This document shows, piece by piece, positions 36,967-50,428 of a stretch of 64,000 bases of DNA. Every line of letters starts with the position of its first letter. Position 1 is the first letter of the stretch. Under the pieces are notes generated by a model. The model worked only from the letters and a program-made list of their open reading frames with translations. It did no database searches and was not told the origin of the DNA. The stretch spans positions 62,001 through 126,000 of the forward strand of contig NZ_PVTG01000005.1 in assembly GCF_003002915.1 (NCBI RefSeq). Direction: 5' to 3'. The DNA is from Geodermatophilus tzadiensis (GTDB lineage: Bacteria > Actinomycetota > Actinomycetes > Mycobacteriales > Geodermatophilaceae). A program made the position numbers and the translations under genes.

Positions 36967-37109
36967 GCGCCCGTCGCGGACGCTCGGACCGCCGACGGTG
37001 GGTGCGCCCGTCCCCGGTCGGGGAACCGGGCGCGGGCGTGCACCGTCGAACGAGGAGACGGCGCGGCGCAGCGGCCGCGCGTGGGCGATCGACGGTGTGC
37101 GCCCACGCC

Positions 37110-37130
37110 CCGTTCCGACGTCCGGAACGG
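37110..37130. repeat. Inverted repeat CCGTTCCG-N5-CGGAACGG
   Basis: Perfect 8-base arms in the 500-base gap between uvrB and terC. The flanking sequence repeats a CGACGGTG...GCGCCC phrase near 36990 and 37090. Function unknown. The rest of 36967-37282 shows no gene I can support. Confidence 0.45.
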
Positions 37131-37174
37131 TGCGCTCGCCCACCCCGTCGACCGGCGGGGTGGGGGCGGGCCCC

Positions 37175-37194
37175 CGATGAGAGTTCTCTCATCG
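37175..37194. promoter_or_regulatory. 20-base palindrome upstream of the manganese riboswitch
   Basis: CGATGAGAG and CTCTCATCG flank TT with perfect symmetry, about 90 bases upstream of the riboswitch core. This is AT-richer than its surroundings and suits a repressor or activator of terC transcription. Confidence 0.5.
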
Positions 37195-37282
37195 AGGAAC
37201 ACCGCGCATCTCGGGGACGTCTGTGGGGAAGGAACCCCCCGACCGCGGTCCGTCAGCAGGTCCGCCTCGGGGGGTCATCCGT

Positions 37283-37386
37283 GGAGGGGAGTATCCCCAC
37301 GCGGCGGTGTCGTCAGCACGAGGTCCCCGAGGGCCTCCGGTACCGCCGGCCACCTCGACCGAGGCGGTGGGAGAGACCTCAGGCCC
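37283..37386 (+). ncRNA. yybP-ykoY (manganese) riboswitch upstream of terC
   Basis: The leader contains GGAGGGGAGTATCCCC, then CGTCAGCACGAGG, GGGCCTCCGGTACCGCCGG and finally GAGGCGGTGGGAGAGACCTC, the order and wording of actinobacterial yybP-ykoY elements. These bind Mn2+ and switch on manganese exporters. It ends 45 bases before the TerC start. Assignment is by eye without a covariance search. Confidence 0.8.
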
Positions 37387-37431
37387 GACACGCGGCGCGA
37401 GCGCGCCGCAGAGTCACCGGAGGTACCTGTC

Positions 37432-38574
37432 GTGGACGTCCCCTTCTGGGTCTGGGCGATCACGGTCGGCGCGATCATCGCCATGATCGTGTTCGACTTC
37501 GTCGGCCACGTGCGCACACCGCACGCCCCGTCGCTGCGCGAGGCGGCGACCTGGTCGGCGATCTACGTCGCCATCGCCGTCGTGTTCGGCATCGGCGTGT
37601 GGGTCTTCGCCGGCGGCCAGTACGGCGGTGAGTACTTCGCCGGTTACATCACCGAGAAGAGCCTCTCGGTGGACAACCTGTTCGTCTTCGTCCTGATCAT
37701 GGCCAGCTTCGCGGTGCCCCGGGAGCTGCAGCAGAAGGTGCTGCTGTTCGGCATCGCCTTCGCGCTGGTCCTGCGGACGGTCTTCATCCTCCTCGGCGCC
37801 GCGGCGATCGAGAACTTCAGCTGGGTCTTCTACCTCTTCGGCGCCTTCCTCATCTACACCGCCGTCGTCCAGGCCCGCGCCAGCGGTGACGAGGACGACG
37901 AGTTCAAGGAGAACGGCTTCCTCCGGCTGGTCCGCCGCGTCATCCCGACCACCGAGGAGTACCACTCCGACCGGATGACGACGAAGCTCGACGGCAGGCG
38001 GCACATCACCCCGCTGGCCATCGCGCTGGTCGCCATCGGCAGCGCCGACATCCTCTTCGCCGTCGACTCGATCCCGGCCATCTTCGGCCTGACCGAGGAG
38101 ACCTTCCTCGTCTTCGCCGCCAACGCCTTCTCGCTGCTCGGCCTGCGCCAGCTGTTCTTCCTCATCGACGGCCTGCTCGACCGGCTGGTCTACCTGCACT
38201 ACGGCCTGGCGGTCATCCTCGGCTTCATCGGCGTCAAGCTGCTCATCCACGCCCTGCACGAGAACGAGCTGCCGTTCATCAACGGCGGCGAGCACGTGAC
38301 GGCCATCCCGGAGGTGCCGACCTGGCTGTCGCTGGCGGTCATCGTGGTCACCCTGCTCGTCACCACCGTCGCCAGCCTCGCCCGCAGCCGCCGCGACGAG
38401 CGGGAGGCCGCGGCCCGCGCCGGCCGCACCGGCACCCCGACGGTGGGCACCACCGGCCCGGGCGTCGCGGGCGAGGTGCGCGCGGACGGCGTCCCCGCCG
38501 ACAGCGGCGACCGCTCCGTGACCCCGGCGCCGGCCGGGTCGCGCGACCCCGGGGACGGGCGCGGCACCGTCTGA
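37432..38574 (+). CDS. TerC/Alx-family membrane protein, likely manganese exporter
   Basis: A 380-aa integral membrane protein. The GTG at 37432 has GGAGG eight bases upstream. About eight to nine membrane segments cover residues 1-325, with the family motifs EKSLSVDNLFVFVLIMASF and ADILFAVDSIPAIFG, whose Asp residues lie inside the membrane and probably bind metal. The last 55 residues are a Pro/Gly-rich, disordered cytosolic tail unusual in length. Bacterial TerC/Alx/MeeF-type proteins export Mn2+, and the upstream yybP-ykoY element supports that here. It opens the Ter island; a hairpin at 38644-38682 separates it from terD. Confidence 0.93.
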   Translation: MDVPFWVWAITVGAIIAMIVFDFVGHVRTPHAPSLREAATWSAIYVAIAVVFGIGVWVFAGGQYGGEYFAGYITEKSLSVDNLFVFVLIMASFAVPRELQQKVLLFGIAFALVLRTVFILLGAAAIENFSWVFYLFGAFLIYTAVVQARASGDEDDEFKENGFLRLVRRVIPTTEEYHSDRMTTKLDGRRHITPLAIALVAIGSADILFAVDSIPAIFGLTEETFLVFAANAFSLLGLRQLFFLIDGLLDRLVYLHYGLAVILGFIGVKLLIHALHENELPFINGGEHVTAIPEVPTWLSLAVIVVTLLVTTVASLARSRRDEREAAARAGRTGTPTVGTTGPGVAGEVRADGVPADSGDRSVTPAPAGSRDPGDGRGTV

Positions 38575-38805: not shown

Positions 38806-39387
38806 ATGGGTGTCAGCCTCTCCAAGGGCGGGAACGTCTCGCTGACCAAGGAGGCCCCGGGTCTGACCGCGGTGAACGTCGGCCTCGGCTGGGACGTCAA
38901 CACGTTCTCCGGTGGCGACTTCGACCTCGACGCATCGGCGATCATGGTCGGCCCCGAGGGCAAGGTCACCCCGGACGACTCGGGCTTCGTCTTCTTCAAC
39001 AACCTGCGCAGCCCCGACGGCTCGGTGGTGCACGTCGGTGACAACCTCACCGGCGCCGGCGAGGGCGACGACGAGGTCATCCAGGTCGACCTCTCCTCGG
39101 TCCCGCCGACCTGCCAGAAGATCGTCTTCCCGGTGTCCATCTACGACGCGGACAGCCGCAAGCAGAACTTCGGCGCCGTCCGCAACGCGTTCATCCGCGT
39201 GGTCAACCAGGCCAACGGCGCGGAGATCGCCCGCTACGACCTGACCGAGGACGCCTCGGTCGAGACCGCCATGGTCTTCGGCGAGCTGTACCGCAACGGC
39301 GCCGAGTGGAAGTTCCGCGCGGTGGGCCAGGGCTACGCCTCCGGCCTGCGCGGCATCGCCCAGGACTTCGGCGTCAACGTCGGCTGA
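38806..39387 (+). CDS. terD: TerD-family stress protein
   Basis: A 193-aa single-domain TerD protein of canonical length. [20 protein letters not shown] is the family N terminus. [11 protein letters not shown], then [19 protein letters not shown] and [18 protein letters not shown] hold the acidic residues that bind Ca2+ in characterised members. The end is [27 protein letters not shown]. TerD proteins are cytosolic or membrane-associated components of chemical and metal stress responses, including tellurite resistance, whose biochemistry is unresolved. It stands alone between two hairpins, so it may be expressed separately and more strongly than the genes after it. Confidence 0.95.
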
Positions 39388-41003: not shown

Positions 41004-42200
41004 GTGCGCCACTTCGCGTACCTGACCGACGACGACCGCGACCGGCTGTTCGCCGTCCCCCCGGGGGACGTCGGCCCGGCCACCCAGCGCGGCATGCTCG
41101 CGCTGGCCCTCGGCGCCACGCTCTACAGCCCCGGCACCCGGCCGGCGCTCGACGCCGACGCCGAGCGGGCCGCCTCGATCGGCGCCACCAGCGTGGTCTG
41201 GTGCCTGGAGGACGCCATCCCGCACGCCGAGGTGCCCGCCGCCGAGGCCAACGTGGTGGCCGCGCTGCAGCGGCTCGACCAGCGGGCCGGCGACGGCGGG
41301 GACCTGCCGCTGCTGTTCGTCCGGGTGCGCACCCCCGAGCAGATCCGCTCGATCGCGCTGGCCGCCGGTCCCGCCCTGCCCCGCCTCACCGGCTTCAGCC
41401 TGCCCAAGGCCACCGGCGGCACGCTCGGCCCGATGCTGGCGGCGGTCGCCGAGGTCAGCGCCGCGACCGGCCACCCGCTCTACGGCATGCCGATCCTCGA
41501 GACCGCCGACCTGGCCTGGCGGGAGACCCGCGCCGGGGCGCTGACCGCGCTCGCCGAGGTCGTCGAGGAGCACCGCGAGCACGTGCTGTGCCTGCGCGTC
41601 GGCGGCACCGACCTGTCGGGGCTGTTCGGCCTGCGCCGCGACCGCGACACCACCATCTGGGACGTCGCCGTCGTCCGCGACTGCCTGGCCGACGTGGTCA
41701 ACCGCTTCACCCGGGGCGGCGAGCACGTGGTCACCGGCGCGGTGTGGGAGCACATCCCCGGCCCCCGGCTGTTCAAGCCGCAGCTGCGCTCCACGCCGTT
41801 CAGCGACCAGCACGAGGGCCCGCTGCGGCAGCGGATGATCGACGGCGACCTCGACGGGCTGATGCGCGAGGTGGCGCTGGACAAGGCCAACGGCGTGCTC
41901 GGCAAGACGGTGATCCACCCGTCGCACGTGTCGGTGGTCAACGCGCTGCTCACCGTCTCCCGCGACGAGTACGACGACGCCCTCGAGGTGCTCATGGCCC
42001 GCGGCCGCGGCGGCATCGCGGTGTCCGGGCACGGGCGGATGAACGAGGTCGGGCCGCACGCGCTGTGGGCCGAGCTGGTCAGCCGCCGCGCCGCGGTCTA
42101 CGGCGTGGTCGCCGACGAGGCCGCGCTGGTCGAGCTGCTCTCGGCCGGGCAGCGCCGGCTGGCCGAGGTGTTCGCGGTTGGGGAGGCCCGGCGCTCGTGA
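41004..42200 (+). CDS. HpcH/HpaI (CitE-like) lyase of the Ter biosynthetic cassette
   Basis: A 398-aa TIM-barrel protein of the HpcH/HpaI aldolase/citrate-lyase-beta family. The GTG at 41004 has GAAGGGAACG upstream. TSVVWCLEDAIPHAEV holds the family's acidic metal-site motif. FVRVRTPEQIRSIAL, then FSLPKATGG and GMPILETADLAW supply the Arg, Lys and Glu positions, and GKTVIHPSHV is the typical C-terminal motif. Members cleave or form C-C bonds of acyl-CoA or keto-acid substrates. In Ter islands this enzyme is part of a predicted pathway for a nucleoside-like metabolite; the reaction is unknown. It heads four genes joined by successive GTGA overlaps. Confidence 0.88.
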   Translation: MRHFAYLTDDDRDRLFAVPPGDVGPATQRGMLALALGATLYSPGTRPALDADAERAASIGATSVVWCLEDAIPHAEVPAAEANVVAALQRLDQRAGDGGDLPLLFVRVRTPEQIRSIALAAGPALPRLTGFSLPKATGGTLGPMLAAVAEVSAATGHPLYGMPILETADLAWRETRAGALTALAEVVEEHREHVLCLRVGGTDLSGLFGLRRDRDTTIWDVAVVRDCLADVVNRFTRGGEHVVTGAVWEHIPGPRLFKPQLRSTPFSDQHEGPLRQRMIDGDLDGLMREVALDKANGVLGKTVIHPSHVSVVNALLTVSRDEYDDALEVLMARGRGGIAVSGHGRMNEVGPHALWAELVSRRAAVYGVVADEAALVELLSAGQRRLAEVFAVGEARRS

Positions 42201-43468
42201 CGGCGCTCCTGTCGGGTGCCGCGCTGGACGGCACCGTCTCCCGCCTGCTCGACGTCCGCGCGGCGGACCCGGCCGGCTTCGCCGCGCTGTGCGGCCTGGG
42301 CCTGCGGGACAACCCGCGCCGCGCCCACCTGGTGGTCTCCCGGGTGCTGGGCAAGCACGTGCCGGTCGCGCCGGACGCCGTCCTCGGCGCCGGGGCGGCG
42401 GTGGGGGACGCCGTGGCCGCCGTCCTCGGCGACGACGTCCCCGGCCTGGTCGTCGGCTACTGCGAGACGGCGACCGGCCTCGGCCACGCGGCCGCGGCCC
42501 GCCTCGGCGCGGCCTGCCTGCACACCACCCGGCGGGTGCACCCCGGCGTGCCGGTGGCCGCCCGGTTCGCGGAGGAGCACTCGCACGCCGTCGCCCACGC
42601 GCTGCAGCCGGCCGGCCCGGTCGGGCTGGACGCCCCCGGGGCGCTCGTCCTGGTCGACGACGAGCTGACCAGCGGCCGCACCGCGCTGAACACCGTCGCC
42701 GAGCTGCAGGCCCGCTGGCCGCGCGAGCGCTACGTCGTCGCCACCCTGCTCGACGCGCGCACCGCGGCCGCCCGGTCGGCGTTCGCCGAGCGGGCCGCGG
42801 CGCTGGGTGTGCGGGTCTACGTCGCCGCCGTGCTCACCACGGAGCTGGAGCTGCCCGGCGACGTCCTCGAGCGGGCCGCCGCCGCCCGCGCCGCGCTGCC
42901 CGGCCCCGCGCCCGCACCCGCCGGTGCGCCGGGCGCCGTCGTCCGCCACGGGGGCCTGTGGCCGGCCGGCGTGCCCACCACCGCCCGGCACGGCCTGACC
43001 CCCGCCGGCACGGGACGGCTGCACGCGGCCGCCGACGCCGTCGCCGCGGCACTCGCACCCGCGCTGGCCGGCAGCCGCGGTGTCCTGGTGCTCGGCACCG
43101 AGGAGCTCATGTACGCGCCCACCGTGGTCGCCGCCCGGCTGGCCGGCCGACTGCCCGGCGTCCCCGTCACCACCCAGTCGACCACCCGGAGCCCCGTGCA
43201 CGCCGCCGACGACCCCGGCTACGCCCTGCGGCGCAGCCTCGCCTTCCCCGCGCCCGACGACCCGTCGCGGCTGTCCCGGGTGCACAACCTGGCCGACCCG
43301 GCCGCCGTCCCCGCCGCCGGCCGGTGGGCGGACCTGCGGGCCGACGACGTCGTGGTCGTCGCCGACGCGCCGGCCGCCGACTGCGCGCCGCTGGCCGAGG
43401 CGCTGCGCCCGTTCGCCGCCCGCGCGGTGCACCTGGTGCCCGTGCCGGTCGCGGAGCCCGCGCCGTGA
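42197..43468 (+). CDS. Phosphoribosyltransferase-TRSP domain protein
   Basis: A 423-aa two-domain protein overlapping the lyase gene (GTGA). Residues about 1-235 are a PRTase fold with a clear PRPP loop, ALVLVDDELTSGRTALNTV. The second half (about 260-423) matches the TRSP domain found only in Ter-associated proteins (SRGVLVLGTEELMYAPTVVA, PGVPVTTQSTTRSPV). It probably transfers a base or analogue onto phosphoribose in the Ter metabolite pathway. The organisation HpcH, PRTase-TRSP, second PRTase-like and HAD is the cassette described computationally for Ter systems; biochemical function remains unproven. Confidence 0.87.
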   Translation: MTALLSGAALDGTVSRLLDVRAADPAGFAALCGLGLRDNPRRAHLVVSRVLGKHVPVAPDAVLGAGAAVGDAVAAVLGDDVPGLVVGYCETATGLGHAAAARLGAACLHTTRRVHPGVPVAARFAEEHSHAVAHALQPAGPVGLDAPGALVLVDDELTSGRTALNTVAELQARWPRERYVVATLLDARTAAARSAFAERAAALGVRVYVAAVLTTELELPGDVLERAAAARAALPGPAPAPAGAPGAVVRHGGLWPAGVPTTARHGLTPAGTGRLHAAADAVAAALAPALAGSRGVLVLGTEELMYAPTVVAARLAGRLPGVPVTTQSTTRSPVHAADDPGYALRRSLAFPAPDDPSRLSRVHNLADPAAVPAAGRWADLRADDVVVVADAPAADCAPLAEALRPFAARAVHLVPVPVAEPAP

Positions 43469-44589
43469 CCGCGGCGGCGGCCCTCGCGCCCGCCGTCCCC
43501 GGCCGGTTCGGCTCCTACGCGCCCGAGGAGGTGACCTGGCTGCTCACCGACCTGTCGTCGGTCGCGCTGGAGCGCGGCACCGAGGACCGCGAGGAGGCCA
43601 TCCAGTCGGGCACCCACTACTCGGAGATGCTGCCGGTCGAGTACCAGCCCGACGCGGCCTACCTCGCGCTGTTCGACGCGGCGCTCGAGGCCTCGGCGGG
43701 CCGGCTGGCCGACGCCGTGGCCCGGGTCGGCGAGCTGGTGTGGGACGCCGCGGCCGCGCACGGGCAGACCCCGGTGCTCGTCTCGCTGGCCCGTGCCGGG
43801 ACGCCGATCGGCGTGCTGCTGCGCCGCTGGTACCGCGCCTCCCGGGGGGTCGACGTGCCGCACTACACGATCTCGATCATCCGCGGCCGCGGCATCGACG
43901 AGGTGGCGGTGGCGCACGTGCTCGCCCGGCACCCGGCGTCGGCGGTGCGCTTCGTCGACGGCTGGACCGGCAAGGGCGCCATCCAGCGCCAGCTCACCGC
44001 GGCCGTCGCCGGCTGGGTCGCCGCGCACCCGGAGGACGCCGCCCTCGACGACCGGCTCGCCGTCCTGGCCGACCCCGGCGGCTGCACGGAGCTGCACGGC
44101 ACCCGCGACGACTTCCTCATCCCGAGCGCCTGCCTCAACAGCACGGTGTCGGGGCTGGTGTCGCGCACGGTGCTGCGCGACGACCTCATCGGCCCCGGCA
44201 TGTTCCACGGCGCGAAGTACTACGCCGAGCTCGCCGGGTCCGACGTGTCGGCGCGGTTCGTCGACACCGTGGCCGCCGCCTTCCCGGCCGCCCCGCCCGC
44301 CGACGACGTCCCGGCCGGCGCGCGCACGCCCACCTGGGCCGGCTGGACGGCGGTGGAGCGGATCGCCGCCGAGCACGGCATCGCCGACGTCCACCTGGTC
44401 AAGCCCGGGGTCGGGGAGACCACCCGGGTGCTGCTGCGCCGGGTGCCCTGGCAGGTGCTGGTCCGCCCCGACCGGGCCGAGGACCTGCGGCACGTCGCCG
44501 CGCTGGCCCGCGCCCGCGGGGTGCCGCTGGTCGACGTCCCCGACCTGCCCTACTCCTGCGTGGGGCTGATCCGGCCGGTGGGCCGGTGA
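43465..44589 (+). CDS. StiP/PRTase-like protein of the Ter cassette
   Basis: A 374-aa protein overlapping the PRTase-TRSP gene by GTGA. FGSYAPEEVTWLLTDLS and QSGTHYSEMLPVEYQP open the family. VSLARAGTPIGVLLRRWYRA then SIIRGRGID and VRFVDGWTGKGAIQRQL resemble a phosphoribosyltransferase with a degenerate PRPP loop. IPSACLNSTVSGLVSRTVL carries a conserved Cys, the reason some databases call the family a StiP cysteine protease. Whether it is a transferase or a protease is unsettled. Genome context with the second PRTase and the HAD protein favours a role in the same biosynthetic route. Confidence 0.82.
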   Translation: MTAAAALAPAVPGRFGSYAPEEVTWLLTDLSSVALERGTEDREEAIQSGTHYSEMLPVEYQPDAAYLALFDAALEASAGRLADAVARVGELVWDAAAAHGQTPVLVSLARAGTPIGVLLRRWYRASRGVDVPHYTISIIRGRGIDEVAVAHVLARHPASAVRFVDGWTGKGAIQRQLTAAVAGWVAAHPEDAALDDRLAVLADPGGCTELHGTRDDFLIPSACLNSTVSGLVSRTVLRDDLIGPGMFHGAKYYAELAGSDVSARFVDTVAAAFPAAPPADDVPAGARTPTWAGWTAVERIAAEHGIADVHLVKPGVGETTRVLLRRVPWQVLVRPDRAEDLRHVAALARARGVPLVDVPDLPYSCVGLIRPVGR

Positions 44590-45392
44590 CGGCGGTGCTG
44601 CCGGCGACCCTGGCCGCGGTCGACCTCGACCGCACGCTCATCTACTCCGCCGCCGCGGCCGGGGACACCGCGGGCCTCGAGGTCGTCGAGCACCTCGACG
44701 GCGCCCCGCTGTCGCACGCCACCCCGGCCTCCTGGGCGCTGCTCGCCGAGCTGGCCGGCCGGGCGCTGGTCGTCCCGGTGACCACCCGCACCGTGGCGCA
44801 GTACGAGCGGGTGCGGCTGCCGCTGCTGCCCCGGTACGCGCTGTGCGGCAACGGCGGGGTGCTGCTCGTCGACGGCGTCCGCGACCCCGGCTGGGACGAC
44901 TGGGCGGCCGGCGTGGCCGGGCGCGCGGCGCCGCTGCCGGAGCTGCTCGGCCTGCTCGAGGCGGTGGCCGGGCAGCCGTGGGTGCGCACCGTGCGCGCCG
45001 CGGAGGACCTGTTCTGCTACCTCGTGGCGCACTCCCGGGCCGGCATCCCGGAGGACTGGCTGGCCGGCACCGCGGCCGCCGCGTCGGCCGCGGGCGCCAC
45101 CCTGTCGGTGCAGGGCCGCAAGGTGTACCTCGTGCCGGCCGGGCTGTCGAAGGCCGCCGGGCTGCTCCGGCTGCGCCGCCTGCTCACCGCCGGCGGGGCC
45201 GCGCCGCGGCTGCTGTGCGCCGGCGACAGCCTGCTCGACGCGCCGATGCTGCTGGCCGCCGACGCCGCCGTCCGGCCCGCGCACGGCGAGCTGCACGAGC
45301 AGGGCTGGACCGGCGCCCGGGTCGCGGTCACCGCGGCCACCGGCGCCGCGGCCGGCGAGGAGATCGTGCGCTGGCTGCTCGACCGGGCCTAG
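44586..45392 (+). CDS. HAD-superfamily phosphatase of the Ter cassette
   Basis: A 268-aa HAD hydrolase, GTG start overlapping the previous stop. Motif I is AAVDLDRTLIYS (nucleophile and acid Asp), motif II lies near VVPVTTRTV, motif III Lys is in VPAGLSKAAGLLRL and motif IV is LCAGDSLLDAPML. The layout resembles sugar-phosphatase/Cof-type HADs. It likely dephosphorylates the final nucleotide-like intermediate of the cassette. Its TAG stop shares the palindrome CTAG with the stop of the convergent coiled-coil gene, so no room is left for a classical terminator. Confidence 0.88.
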   Translation: MTAVLPATLAAVDLDRTLIYSAAAAGDTAGLEVVEHLDGAPLSHATPASWALLAELAGRALVVPVTTRTVAQYERVRLPLLPRYALCGNGGVLLVDGVRDPGWDDWAAGVAGRAAPLPELLGLLEAVAGQPWVRTVRAAEDLFCYLVAHSRAGIPEDWLAGTAAAASAAGATLSVQGRKVYLVPAGLSKAAGLLRLRRLLTAGGAAPRLLCAGDSLLDAPMLLAADAAVRPAHGELHEQGWTGARVAVTAATGAAAGEEIVRWLLDRA

Positions 45393-46681
45393 TCGGCCCG
45401 GGCGGTGCGCACCAGCCCGGCCAGCCCCCGCTCGATCGAGGTCGCCTCGCGCAGCACCGCGCCCACGTCGGGCCGCTCGGCGCGCGCGGCCTCCTCCAGC
45501 GGGGGCAGCCGCCGGGCGAGCTCCTCGAAGGTGCGGCGGAAGCGGCGGGCCCGCTCTTCGGGGAGGCCCGCGAGGAACCGGCGGGCGTCGACCAGCGCGC
45601 GCTGCACGTCGCCGAGCAGCGCCCGGGGGTCGGCGGCCACCGCGTCGAGCTGCTCCAGGCGCCCGGTGGCCGCGCGCACCTCGTCGTCGACGCGGCCGGC
45701 CGCGGTCCGCACCTGGGCGAGCAGCGCGGCCGCGGCGGGGACGTCGAGCACCGGGGCGGCGAGGACGCCGTCCAGGCCGGCCAGGGCGGCGTCGACCTCG
45801 CGCAGCGCCTCGGCCGCCCGCTGCGGCGCCCGCTCGACGTCGGCCCAGGCCGAGAGCGGGTAGCGCCGCCGCAGCTCGCTCATCACCGGCGCCAGCCGCT
45901 CGTGCCGGGTGCCCAGCGCCTCCCGCCGGGTGTGCACCGAGGCGGCGCCGCGGCGCACGTCGGCGGCGCGGCCGGGCAGCGCCCGGGCCCGCTCGGCGAC
46001 CGACGCGGCGGTCCGCCGCGCCTCCTCGGCGGCGCTGCCGGCGGCGCCGGCGCGGCGGGCGGCCAGCTCGGCCTCCGCCCTCGCGGCCGCGGCCCGGGCA
46101 CCGGCGAGGGCGGCGTCCAGCGCGGGGTCGGCCAGCCCGGCGGCGGTGGCCTCCCCGAGCGCGGCGCGGGCGGCGGCGACCGCGTCGCGGGCCGCGGAGA
46201 GCGTGCGCGTGGCCCCGGCGCGGGCGCTCGAGGCGGCGGTGAGGGCCTCGCCGTACTGCTCGCGGAAGCGCAGCACCTGGGCGAGCACCTCGCGCAGCGC
46301 GTCGGCCGCCCGGCCCAGCTCGGCGGTGGCCGCGCGGGCCGGTCCGGACTCGGTCGCGGCGTCCGCGTCATGGTTGGAAAGCGCCTGCAGATAGTGTCCA
46401 ATGACCGCGTCGGCGTGGGCGGAGAGGTCCCGCCAGTCACGGGTCAACGAGTCGGGGGCGGATGCGGCGTGCTGGGCCCGGCCTCCGCGCGCAACAGCCG
46501 CCGCGGTCTCCTCCGCACGCTCCTCGGCCACGGCCACCGCGTCCGGCAGGTCGCTGAGCGCCGCGTCGAGCTCCAGCATCGCCGCGGCCGCCGCCTCGCG
46601 CGCCGCGGCCGCCCGGCGCCGGGCGGCGTCCGCGTCGCGACGCCACCAGCGGGGAGCCGCACCGGAACCGAGCCCGGCCAT
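45389..46681 (-). CDS. Ala/Arg-rich coiled-coil protein
   Basis: A 430-aa soluble protein with no signal or membrane segment. The ATG at 46681 follows GGGAGG. Nearly the whole chain is helical, rich in Ala, Arg and Glu, with heptad-like runs (AARRRAAAAREAAAAAMLEL; REVLAQVLRFREQYGEALTA; RRFRRTFEELARRL). A brief Trp/Asp-containing break, LTRDWRDLSAHADAVIGHYL, may be a hinge. I recognise no enzyme family. It is convergent with the HAD gene, sharing its stop palindrome, and divergent from the DUF475 gene. A scaffold or membrane-adaptor role within the Ter assembly fits the context but is inferred. Confidence 0.8.
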   Translation of the reverse strand: MAGLGSGAAPRWWRRDADAARRRAAAAREAAAAAMLELDAALSDLPDAVAVAEERAEETAAAVARGGRAQHAASAPDSLTRDWRDLSAHADAVIGHYLQALSNHDADAATESGPARAATAELGRAADALREVLAQVLRFREQYGEALTAASSARAGATRTLSAARDAVAAARAALGEATAAGLADPALDAALAGARAAAARAEAELAARRAGAAGSAAEEARRTAASVAERARALPGRAADVRRGAASVHTRREALGTRHERLAPVMSELRRRYPLSAWADVERAPQRAAEALREVDAALAGLDGVLAAPVLDVPAAAALLAQVRTAAGRVDDEVRAATGRLEQLDAVAADPRALLGDVQRALVDARRFLAGLPEERARRFRRTFEELARRLPPLEEAARAERPDVGAVLREATSIERGLAGLVRTARAD

Positions 46682-48213: not shown

Positions 48214-48831
48214 GTGGCACTGCTCACCGCGCACAAGCGCGTCCTGCACGCCGACCTGCAGGGCGACCGCATCCGGGCCGCCAGCGGCTCGATGGTCGCC
48301 GTCGAGGGCAACGTCGAGTTCACGAGCGCCGGCATGGGCGGTGGCGGCGGCTTGCGGGCGGCGCTCAAGCGCGCCGTCGCCGGGGAGAGCCTCTCGCTCA
48401 TGGACTGCGCCGGCCACGGCCGCGTCCACCTCGCCCTCGACGCCATGGACGTGCTCGTCGTCGACCTGGCCGGCGACACGCTCACCGTGGAGAGCGAGCA
48501 CATCCTGGCGCACACCGAGCAGCTGCGCCTCGACGTCCAGTTCGCCGGCCTGCGCGGCGTCACCAGCGGCCAGGGCCTGGCCACCACCACCGTCACCGGG
48601 CACGGCCAGGTGGCGCTCGTCTCCGAGGGCCCGGTGATGGCGCTGGAGGTCGCGCCCGGCCAGGACCTCGTCGTCGACCCCGACGCCTACGTCGGCTCCC
48701 GCGGCCAGCTGTCGATGAACCTGGTCAGCGGCGTCTCGTGGAAGTCCCTCGTGGGGGAGGGCTCCGGCGAGCCCTTCTCCCTCCGCTTCACCGGGCACGG
48801 CCTGGTGCTCGTCCAGTCCTCGGAGCGCTGA
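48214..48831 (+). CDS. AIM24-family protein 1
   Basis: A 205-aa protein of the AIM24/TIGR00266 beta-sandwich family. The GTG start has GAGAGGAACCC upstream. The chain is a series of short beta strands with the family features GSMVAVEGNVEFTSAGMGGG near the N terminus and the closing YVGSRGQLSMNL and GEPFSLRFTGHGLVLVQSS. The bacterial members are cytosolic with unknown biochemistry; the mitochondrial relative supports inner-membrane organisation. It is the first of three consecutive AIM24 paralogues with gaps of only three and ten bases, so they probably form a hetero-oligomer. Confidence 0.85.
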   Translation: MALLTAHKRVLHADLQGDRIRAASGSMVAVEGNVEFTSAGMGGGGGLRAALKRAVAGESLSLMDCAGHGRVHLALDAMDVLVVDLAGDTLTVESEHILAHTEQLRLDVQFAGLRGVTSGQGLATTTVTGHGQVALVSEGPVMALEVAPGQDLVVDPDAYVGSRGQLSMNLVSGVSWKSLVGEGSGEPFSLRFTGHGLVLVQSSER

Positions 48832-48834
48832 CCC

Positions 48835-49479
48835 GTGCCGTTCGAAGAGGTCAACAGCAAGGTCGTGCGCGCGCGGGTCAGCCCGGCGTCACCGGTGCTC
48901 GCCCGGCGGGGCGCGATGCTCGGCTACTCCGGGCAGGTGACCTTCCGCCCGGTCCACGGGCAGGGTCGCGGCATCGGCGGGTTCGCCGGCGCGGCGCTGT
49001 CGGGGGAGTCCAACCCGATGATGGCCACCGAGGGCCAGGGTGAGGTGCTCTACGGCTACAAGGGCCTGCACGTGACGGTGCTCGAACTCGACGGCGGCGC
49101 GCCGCTGGTCTGCGAGGCCGACCGGCTGCTGGTGCACGACGCGGGCCTGCAGACCAGCGTGCAGTTCCTCGGCTCGGGCGGGATCAAGCAGGCGATCGGC
49201 GGCGCCATGACCGGGCAGGGGCTGTTCACCACCAACGTGCACGGGCGCGGGTCGGTGGCGCTGCTGTCCCACGGCGGCGCGTTCCCGCTGCAGCTCAACG
49301 GCACCCAGGTCGGCGTCGACCCGCAGGCCTACGTCGGGCACGTCGGGCAGCTCACCGTGGACCTCGCCGCCAAGGTGGGCTTGCGCGACGTGGTCGGCCG
49401 GGGCTCCGGCGAGGCCTTCCAGCTGCGGATTGGCGGCTACGGCACCGTGTACGTGCAGGCCAGCGAGCAGAAGTTCTGA
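48835..49479 (+). CDS. AIM24-family protein 2
   Basis: A 214-aa AIM24 paralogue starting with GTG three bases after the previous stop. Family features are SPASPVLARRGAMLGYSGQV, a Gly-rich FRPVHGQGRGIGGFAG, VDPQAYVGHVGQLTVDLAA and the C-terminal EAFQLRIGGYGTVYVQASEQ. It has diverged clearly from the first paralogue, so this is an old triplication rather than a fresh duplicate. No catalytic motif is seen. Tight spacing indicates co-translation with both neighbours. Confidence 0.85.
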   Translation: MPFEEVNSKVVRARVSPASPVLARRGAMLGYSGQVTFRPVHGQGRGIGGFAGAALSGESNPMMATEGQGEVLYGYKGLHVTVLELDGGAPLVCEADRLLVHDAGLQTSVQFLGSGGIKQAIGGAMTGQGLFTTNVHGRGSVALLSHGGAFPLQLNGTQVGVDPQAYVGHVGQLTVDLAAKVGLRDVVGRGSGEAFQLRIGGYGTVYVQASEQKF

Positions 49480-49489
49480 GGACGGCGAC

Positions 49490-50428
49490 ATGACGTACCC
49501 GCCCGGCAACCCCTACGGCGGCCAGCCCGGCCCCGGCGGCAACCCCTACGGCCAGCCCCAGCCCGGCTACGGCCAGCCGCCTCCCGGGTACGGCCAGCCC
49601 TCGCCCGGCTACGGCCAGCCCCCGCCCGGGTACGGCCAGCCCCAGCCGGGGTACGGCGGGCCGCCGCAGCCGGCCGCCAGCCCGACCGGGACCACGCTGA
49701 ACCCGCGGACCCTCCCGGACGACGACAACGTCAACCCCTACGTCTTCTGCGTCTCGCTCAACGGCGACTGGTTCATGAGCAAGGGCGCGATGCTCGCCTA
49801 CTACGGCGACGTGCGCTTCGAGGCCGTCACCGAGTACTCCTCGGTGCAGGGGTGGGTGGCCGCCCGCTTCTCCAGCCCGGTCTACGTGCAGGACTGGGTG
49901 GTGGCCACCGGGCACGGCAAGGTGCTCATCGGCGACCGCGGCTTCGACCTCAACTCCTACGACCTCGACGACGGCAACCTGACGATCAAGGCGGGCAACC
50001 TCTGCGCGTTCTCGCCGCAGCTGGAGCTCAAGCAGTCGATCGTGCCCGGCTTCGTCACGCTCATCGGCACCGGCAAGTTCATCGCCTCCTCCAACGGGCC
50101 GGTGATCTTCGTCGAGCCGCCGTTCCGGGCCGACCCGGAGGCGCTGCTGGGGTGGGCCGACTGCCCGTCGCCGTCCGTGCACCACGACGCGCAGTGGATG
50201 ACGCAGAACATCCGCGCCATGATCTCCGGCGCGCTGGGCCGGGCCTCGGGCGAGGAGCGGCAGTACGACTTCACCGGGACGGGGACGATCCTCCTGCAGT
50301 CCTCCGAGGTGGCCCGGGAGGACCCGGCGGTGCTACGACTGGTGGAGTCGCAGACCCAGCTGCTCACCGACAGCCAGGCCGGCTCGCTGGGCCAGCGGCT
50401 CATCGCCCGGGCGCAGCAGCAGCACTGA
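49490..50428 (+). CDS. AIM24-family protein 3 with Gly/Pro/Tyr/Gln-rich N-terminal tail
   Basis: A 312-aa protein whose first 65 residues are a disordered repeat of GYGQPPP-type units. The AIM24 domain follows (DWFMSKGAMLAYYGDVRFEA to EERQYDFTGTGTILLQSSEV), then a short helical tail ending LGQRLIARAQQQH. Comparable tails on other actinobacterial membrane-associated proteins support assembly or phase separation; here that is a guess. The TerA-like protein at 52318 carries a similar Pro/Gln/Tyr-rich tail, which may allow both to join the same complex. A hairpin follows the gene. Confidence 0.87.
   Translation: MTYPPGNPYGGQPGPGGNPYGQPQPGYGQPPPGYGQPSPGYGQPPPGYGQPQPGYGGPPQPAASPTGTTLNPRTLPDDDNVNPYVFCVSLNGDWFMSKGAMLAYYGDVRFEAVTEYSSVQGWVAARFSSPVYVQDWVVATGHGKVLIGDRGFDLNSYDLDDGNLTIKAGNLCAFSPQLELKQSIVPGFVTLIGTGKFIASSNGPVIFVEPPFRADPEALLGWADCPSPSVHHDAQWMTQNIRAMISGALGRASGEERQYDFTGTGTILLQSSEVAREDPAVLRLVESQTQLLTDSQAGSLGQRLIARAQQQH
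49548..49662 (+). repeat. Imperfect tandem repeats coding GYGQPPP units
   Basis: A roughly 24-27-base unit built around GGCTACGGCCAGCC is repeated about five times within the AIM24-3 gene. Likely to vary in length between strains. Confidence 0.7.

What the first reader, a model, noticed from the sequence alone, without database searches (positions are those of the whole stretch)
41004..45392. Four coupled genes predict an unknown nucleoside-like metabolite
HpcH/CitE-like lyase, PRTase-TRSP, a second PRTase-like/StiP protein and a HAD phosphatase are joined by successive GTGA overlaps and lie directly behind terD and a TerD-vWA gene. Computational work on Ter systems proposed such a cassette makes a nucleoside-like compound; the product is still unknown. 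The ATP-grasp enzyme common in other Ter cassettes is absent here, so this may be a reduced or alternative pathway.
Basis: partly seen in the sequence, partly recalled or inferred. Interest (0 to 1): 0.78.

Follow-up and report, generated by a model that had tools for sequence, protein, structure and literature searches.

The report
Ter-linked four-gene metabolite cassette core

Summary
C-C lyase, PRTase_2-TRSP, StiP-PELOTA and a HAD phosphatase (41004-45392) are joined by three GTGA overlaps behind terC, terD and a TerD-vWA gene. The genes are intact and under purifying selection in Geodermatophilus. No Ter-type ATP-grasp was found in the whole assembly: the one family hit is carbamoyl-phosphate synthase.

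"Reduced or alternative pathway" is weak. The ATP-grasp is linked to the cassette in 1 of 97 actinobacterial genomes (one more unresolved) and 7 of 20 Bacillota; plasmids, mostly enterobacterial, hold it about as often as the lyase (2502 and 2508 records). Lyase-PRT-StiP-HAD looks like the core, ATP-grasp an accessory.

StiP models as a PyrR/HGPRT-type PRTase fold plus an L7Ae-like RNA-binding domain. It has no invariant cysteine, and its conserved loop DGWTGKG (97 of 98 rows) is not a canonical PRPP loop. The first PRTase has a textbook loop. PRT and StiP form one reading frame in 47 of 97 loci.

The product remains unknown. New member of a known kind; modest interest.

The parts
37081..38574 (+). 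terC (TerC family membrane protein), start uncertain
   Evidence: PF03741 169 bits; conserved in the genus block (label 'pre')
38806..39387 (+). terD
   Evidence: PF02342 276 bits
39559..40944 (+). TerD domain + TerF-type vWA protein (start uncertain; first start of the frame is 39436)
   Evidence: PF02342 131 bits, PF10138 191 bits
41004..42200 (+). HpcH/CitE-like C-C bond lyase
   Evidence: PF15617 346 bits; E69 D70 R107 R109 K135 E166 D203 K301 H305 unchanged in 173 of 173 relatives aligned
42197..43468 (+). PRTase_2-TRSP: canonical type I PRTase plus TRSP domain
43465..44589 (+). StiP-PELOTA: PyrR/HGPRT-type fold with an altered PRPP-type loop plus L7Ae-like RNA-binding domain
44586..45392 (+). 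HAD (IIB-like) phosphatase
   Evidence: TIGR01486/TIGR01484 weak; motif residues kept in 172 to 174 of 174 relatives aligned
45389..46390 (-). protein without Pfam family, called coiled-coil here from a weak SMC match (20 bits); recurring neighbour of the cassette; start uncertain
   Evidence: homologues in 47 of 97 actinobacterial cassette loci, window included; upstream of and overlapping the lyase gene in Prescottella L164
46957..48078 (+). DUF475/TerC-family membrane protein (start uncertain)
   Evidence: PF04332 367 bits, PF03741 69.5 bits
48214..50428 (+). three AIM24-domain proteins (48214-48831, 48835-49479, about 49523-50428)
   Evidence: PF01987 134, 112, 44 bits

Best explanation
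This is the four-gene core of the known Ter-associated biosynthetic cassette, in the form without a linked ATP-grasp that is the rule in the actinobacteria examined. Proposed working: the PRTase_2 enzyme joins PRPP to a base-like acceptor and gives a nucleotide; the CitE-like lyase makes or trims the acceptor by making or breaking a C-C bond; the HAD phosphatase removes the 5'-phosphate and releases a nucleoside-like compound; StiP, a second PRTase-fold protein that is fused to the first in about half of the actinobacterial loci, handles the same intermediate and ties it to RNA through its L7Ae-like domain. The TerD/TerC/vWA proteins beside it would sense or respond to the compound at the membrane. 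Shown here: domains, retained motifs, predicted folds of PRT and StiP, fusion, linkage, purifying selection, absence of a Ter-type ATP-grasp. Inferred: every reaction, the order of steps, the substrate and the link to stress.
For: Domains and overlaps; canonical PRPP loop in PRT and APRT/OPRT-like fold; StiP fold and L7Ae-like C-terminus with invariant K313, E318, T320, R321; HAD and lyase positions kept; PRT and StiP in one frame in 47 of 97 loci, once with HAD too; same order lyase-PRT-StiP-HAD in 18 of 20 Bacillota loci; phage ME3 keeps PRT-HAD-StiP beside TerD, with no lyase or ATP-grasp match in the 15 kb fetched; pN/pS 0.18-0.60 for the four genes in 11 comparisons each; published proposal of a nucleoside/nucleotide-like signal (passages).
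Against: In the papers and listings I saw, no enzyme of this cassette has a demonstrated substrate. StiP shows no canonical PRPP loop in 98 of 98 rows, so it may not be a PRTase. PRT and StiP profiles do not match each other by sequence (probability 0.1%), and no Foldseek match of StiP reaches E 0.001. Phage ME3 shows no lyase near its cassette, so the lyase may not be essential. In 12 of 24 Streptomyces genomes a Ter-type ATP-grasp of over 100 bits lies elsewhere in the genome, so an unlinked partner cannot be excluded there.
Confidence: 0.6

Rival explanations
1. StiP is not a second biosynthetic PRTase but a PyrR-like sensor: its PRTase fold binds PRPP or the cassette's nucleotide and its L7Ae-like domain then binds a kink-turn RNA, controlling expression or translation.
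For: Closest folds include PyrR, itself an RNA-binding PRTase-fold regulator; L7Ae-type motif K-P-x-x-x-E-x-T-R invariant; loop DGWTGKG differs from the canonical one and lacks the second acid.
Against: The motif SxxRAGxPxG, at the place of a PRTase PPi loop, is kept in 98 of 98 rows; fusion to the canonical PRTase in 47 of 97 loci fits an enzyme as well as a sensor; no Rfam match at window 32000-54000.
Confidence: 0.25
2. The ATP-grasp step is done in trans by an unlinked enzyme, of this or another ATP-grasp family.
For: 12 of 24 Streptomyces genomes with the cassette have an unlinked PF15632 protein of over 100 bits, and 9 of the 13 genomes of the window's genus in that call have a weaker hit of 59-65 bits away from the cassette.
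Against: The window's genome and, of the same genus, G340, G350 and G356 have no such hit; leave none in the window's genome. Other ATP-grasp families were not tested.
Confidence: 0.15
3. The locus is a decaying remnant that lost the ATP-grasp and no longer makes the compound.
For: No Ter-type ATP-grasp in the assembly; the lyases of 12 genus members score lower against Pfam (343-350 bits) than the other strong ones (353-416).
Against: All four reading frames and motifs are intact; pN/pS well below 1; cassettes without a linked ATP-grasp are the rule, 95 or 96 of 97 actinobacterial and 13 of 20 Bacillota.
Confidence: 0.05
4. StiP is a cysteine protease, as its database name says.
For: The Pfam name and the names in plasmid records; three cysteines, C207, C223 and C365, are nearly invariant (90% or more of 25 rows).
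Against: No cysteine is invariant among the 25; C223 and C365 are replaced in the enterobacterial, viral-contig and phage members; 49 of the 50 structural matches listed are PRTase-fold proteins.
Confidence: 0.02

Closest known systems
Ter-associated nucleoside-like biosynthetic cassette (Anantharaman, Iyer and Aravind 2012; known to me only through citing passages and recall)
   Same: Same protein families beside terD, terC and TerF-type vWA
   Different: No ATP-grasp; a coiled-coil protein, DUF475 and three AIM24 proteins complete the block
Enterobacterial plasmid ter locus (L165, CP082149)
   Same: PRT, HAD, StiP, lyase in one run of genes next to ter genes
   Different: ATP-grasp first; order ATP-grasp-PRT-HAD-StiP-lyase; TerW downstream
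Saccharibacillus locus (L233/L267, Bacillota)
   Same: Same order lyase-PRT-StiP-HAD behind TerD genes; StiP 57% identical
   Different: ATP-grasp after HAD
Streptomyces loci (for example L096)
   Same: Lyase, PRT, StiP, HAD with TerD and DUF475, no linked ATP-grasp
   Different: PRT and StiP are one fused frame
PyrR (1ufr, 1a3c)
   Same: Fold of the StiP domain; a PRTase fold combined with RNA binding
   Different: StiP's loop lacks the second acid; RNA binding would be by a separate L7Ae-like domain

Membership tests
Ter-associated biosynthetic cassette | C-C lyase, PRTase_2-TRSP, StiP-PELOTA and HAD phosphatase in one run of overlapping genes | tested here: met
Ter-associated biosynthetic cassette | linked to terD/terC/vWA genes | tested here: met
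   block conserved in 12 Geodermatophilus loci
Ter-associated biosynthetic cassette | Ter-type ATP-grasp (PF15632) in the operon | tested here: not met
   but it is linked in only 1 of 97 actinobacterial genomes (one more unresolved) and 7 of 20 Bacillota, so I treat it as accessory, not defining
Ter-associated biosynthetic cassette | makes a nucleoside-like compound | not testable with these tools
   needs biochemistry
Type I phosphoribosyltransferase (PRT protein) | fold and canonical PRPP loop | tested here: met
Type I phosphoribosyltransferase (StiP protein) | PRTase fold | tested here: met
Type I phosphoribosyltransferase (StiP protein) | PRPP loop with two adjacent acidic residues | tested here: not met
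   0 of 98 rows; DGWTGKG in 97 of 98; that it lies at the loop position is inferred from strand 161-167 and helix 172-187
Cysteine protease (database name of StiP) | conserved catalytic cysteine | tested here: not met
   no invariant cysteine in 25 members, three nearly invariant; two of these replaced in enterobacterial and phage members
L7Ae-type RNA-binding domain (C-terminus of StiP) | fold and K...E.T[KR] motif | tested here: met
   PF15608 117 bits; 3o85_B probability 1.00; profile match to L7Ae only E 0.04
Catalogued anti-phage defence system (PADLOC) | match to a PADLOC-DB model | tested here: not met
   0 of 8 proteins

The most novel reading that the evidence does not exclude
The cassette's end point is RNA, not a free metabolite: the canonical PRTase makes an unusual nucleotide, and StiP, a PyrR-fold protein with a remodelled but conserved loop and a kink-turn-type RNA-binding domain, either transfers a ribosyl-containing group to a structured RNA or reports the nucleotide level to RNA. 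The Ter stress response would then include a dedicated RNA modification or a nucleotide-responsive RNA switch.
Probability: 0.2. Interest if true: 0.7.

Novelty: new member of a known kind. Interest (0 to 1): 0.33.

Why it matters
The product of the Ter cassette has been an open question since the 2012 proposal. The comparison here narrows it: four genes are the shared core, the ATP-grasp is optional, and two of the four are often one protein. A four-protein system from an actinobacterium is therefore a simpler target for reconstitution than the plasmid versions, and the 'cysteine protease' label of StiP would send experiments in the wrong direction.

Tried and rejected
Rejected: 'reduced pathway of this locus' (absence of a linked ATP-grasp is the rule in the actinobacteria examined). 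Rejected: 'cassette decoupled from Ter genes in the Frankia-type family': within 9.5 kb most of these loci showed no TerD, but a whole-genome search found TerD in 26 of 26 genomes, in 18 of them on the same contig 10-17 kb from the lyase. Rejected: a hidden ATP-grasp upstream of the lyase: the unnamed gene in Prescottella L164 is a homologue of the window's coiled-coil protein; the one upstream of the lyase in 12 Geodermatophilaceae loci has no Pfam family (one member) and, like every other frame of the 97 loci except that of L161, does not match an ATP-grasp profile built from four sequences; what it is I do not know. My first selection estimate was wrong because stop-to-stop frames ran into the upstream gene in another frame, limited to the window's reading frames, replaces it. 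pN/pS there is uncorrected and third positions are GC-saturated; DUF475 reaches 0.92 against L085. A gene caller by codon composition missed several cassette genes and was dropped. No Rfam match at window 32000-54000 with E up to 0.5. PHROGs: 0 of 5 proteins matched; PADLOC 0 of 8. TRSP against the N-terminal PRTase half by profile comparison: 30% identity over 53 columns, probability 13%, too weak to claim a duplication. PRT against StiP profiles: no match. No protease is among the 50 rows listed in the structural look at StiP, which by itself excludes nothing. Loop counts over the search for related loci rows would be circular (that scan used the motif as a pattern), so only the 98 rows reached through the lyase or by whole-protein search are quoted. 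On the quick StiP tree Saccharibacillus falls beside the Geodermatophilus clade (support 81, long branch); I draw nothing from it. Papers: the listings showed me no report on the cassette's biochemistry (and one search returned none; one paper that carries the StiP name, listing only). Passages of PMC6262375, PMC6190872 and PMC12054061 concern TerD or terC, not the cassette. The 2012 source paper is not held, so statements on it rest on citing passages.
Full report
What is there. The four genes lie exactly as described: lyase 41004-42200, PRTase_2-TRSP 42197-43468, StiP-PELOTA 43465-44589, HAD 44586-45392, with three GTGA overlaps. Pfam identifies the first three clearly (346, 189+100, 340+117 bits) and terD and a TerD/TerF-vWA protein upstream. 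The HAD protein has no Pfam hit and only weak HAD-IIB matches, but its motif residues are kept in 172 to 174 of 174 relatives aligned. A terC gene precedes terD. Downstream and convergent is a protein that I call coiled-coil from a weak SMC match, then a DUF475/TerC-family protein and three AIM24 proteins.

The organism and the block. Two contig lengths of genus members (270476 and 422141 bases) equal those of named records of Geodermatophilus obscurus DSM 43161 and G. amargosae, which places the genome in Geodermatophilus. In the family search 31 of 112 genomes have a strong PF15617 lyase (over 340 bits); in the genus 13 of 26, of which 12, the window included, share the twelve-gene block (the thirteenth, G356/L079, is on a 5 kb contig and has a fused PRT-StiP). 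In the class search 67 of 296 genomes, the window's included, have a strong lyase. I fetched the 96 loci other than the window's, so 97 in all. In the 12 genus loci [AG]TGA stands at 36 of 36 junctions (exact start codons are not proven), and pN/pS against the window is 0.18-0.57 (lyase), 0.28-0.44 (PRT), 0.20-0.43 (StiP) and 0.19-0.60 (HAD) over 11 comparisons each. The genes look functional.

The missing ATP-grasp. PF15632 gives one hit in the assembly, 28.3 bits (29.2 with its neighbours in the frame, just over the 29.1 cut-off), in carbamoyl-phosphate synthase; two genuine Ter ATP-grasps used as queries find nothing. The model works: 133 bits on an enterobacterial plasmid protein, 155 bits on a Saccharibacillus one. 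Over all 97 cassette genomes of the class (80, 16, G122; E up to 1e-7) a hit close to the cassette is found once, in G074/L161, 9.6 kb away; a separate profile found that one and no other among the frames of the 97 loci. One case is unresolved: G190 has a 109-bit hit on another small contig of a fragmented assembly. Several other cassette contigs are short, so a neighbour beyond their ends cannot be seen, but the whole-genome searches cover it. Unlinked hits over 100 bits occur in 12 of 24 Streptomyces, in G163, and in G313 and G297 of a sister genus. In the window's genus 9 of the 13 genomes have a 59-65 bit hit away from the cassette; the window's genome, G340, G350 and G356 have none. Outside actinobacteria: StiP is in 20 of 398 Bacillota genomes; 7 of the 20 have a linked ATP-grasp of 141-163 bits (positions), 13 do not. 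Plasmids: 2508 records encode a relative of the lyase and 2502 one of the ATP-grasp (mostly enterobacterial; the second count includes at least one distant haloarchaeal match, and I did not pair the records one by one). So the ATP-grasp looks like an accessory: usual on these plasmids, in about a third of the Bacillota cassettes, almost never linked in actinobacteria.

The core. In Bacillota the order lyase-PRT-StiP-HAD is that of the window in 18 of 20 loci (L260 shows StiP-HAD only, L271 PRT-StiP on a cut contig). Phage ME3 has TerD, PRT, HAD and StiP without a lyase or ATP-grasp match in the 15 kb fetched. PRT and StiP are a single reading frame in 47 of 97 actinobacterial loci, one of these with HAD as well; on a quick StiP tree of 104 rows the fused state changes nine times and the linked ATP-grasp three times (30 of 101 inner branches are under 80 support). 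Fusion and order suggest that PRT and StiP act together.

Mechanism. The best reading is the published one, made more specific: PRT makes a nucleotide from PRPP and an acceptor shaped by the lyase, HAD dephosphorylates it, StiP works on the same intermediate and connects to RNA, and Ter proteins respond at the membrane. All reactions are inferred. The main alternative is that StiP is a PyrR-like sensor. The most novel reading is that RNA is the end point.

Known or new. Papers that cite the 2012 analysis describe Ter systems as containing PRTases and HAD enzymes for a nucleoside/nucleotide signal (PMC7824862, passages), a plasmid biosynthetic cluster predicted to make a nucleoside-like metabolite (PMC8115787, passages) and the two Ter PRTases as proposed nucleotide makers (PMC5512222, passages). 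The present locus is a new member of that kind. What the comparison adds is the accessory status of the ATP-grasp, the frequent PRT-StiP fusion, the conserved non-canonical loop of StiP and the recurring coiled-coil neighbour (47 of 97 loci). I cannot say whether the 2012 paper already reported any of these, since I could not read it.

Noticed in passing
window 45389-46390 (-): Protein without Pfam family (coiled-coil-like), present in 47 of 97 actinobacterial cassette loci, and in Prescottella (L164:8763-9953) directly upstream of and overlapping the lyase gene; an unnamed recurring partner of the cassette.
   Followed up: partly
window 45389-45392: The HAD gene and the convergent coiled-coil gene end in one shared CTAG.
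   Followed up: no
window 48214-50428: Three AIM24-domain genes in tandem end the Ter block in the 12 Geodermatophilus loci; profile matches to the first of them also turn up in several Bacillota Ter loci (L257-L259, L268, L270, L272, L273).
   Followed up: partly
window 42900-43468: The TRSP domain weakly resembles the first half of the PRTase domain before it (30% identity over 53 columns, profile probability 13%): possibly a degenerate second PRTase unit.
   Followed up: partly
L162, L163: Ter-type ATP-grasp (127-128 bits) in two genomes of the Streptomyces group on other contigs than the Ter cassette; its own neighbourhood was not examined.
   Followed up: no
L078:2400-5771: PRT, StiP and HAD in a single 1124-residue frame in a genome of the window's family.
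   Followed up: no
L069:8009-9319: A gene of unknown kind directly upstream of the lyase, with relatives in 12 loci of the window's family outside the window's own block.
   Followed up: partly
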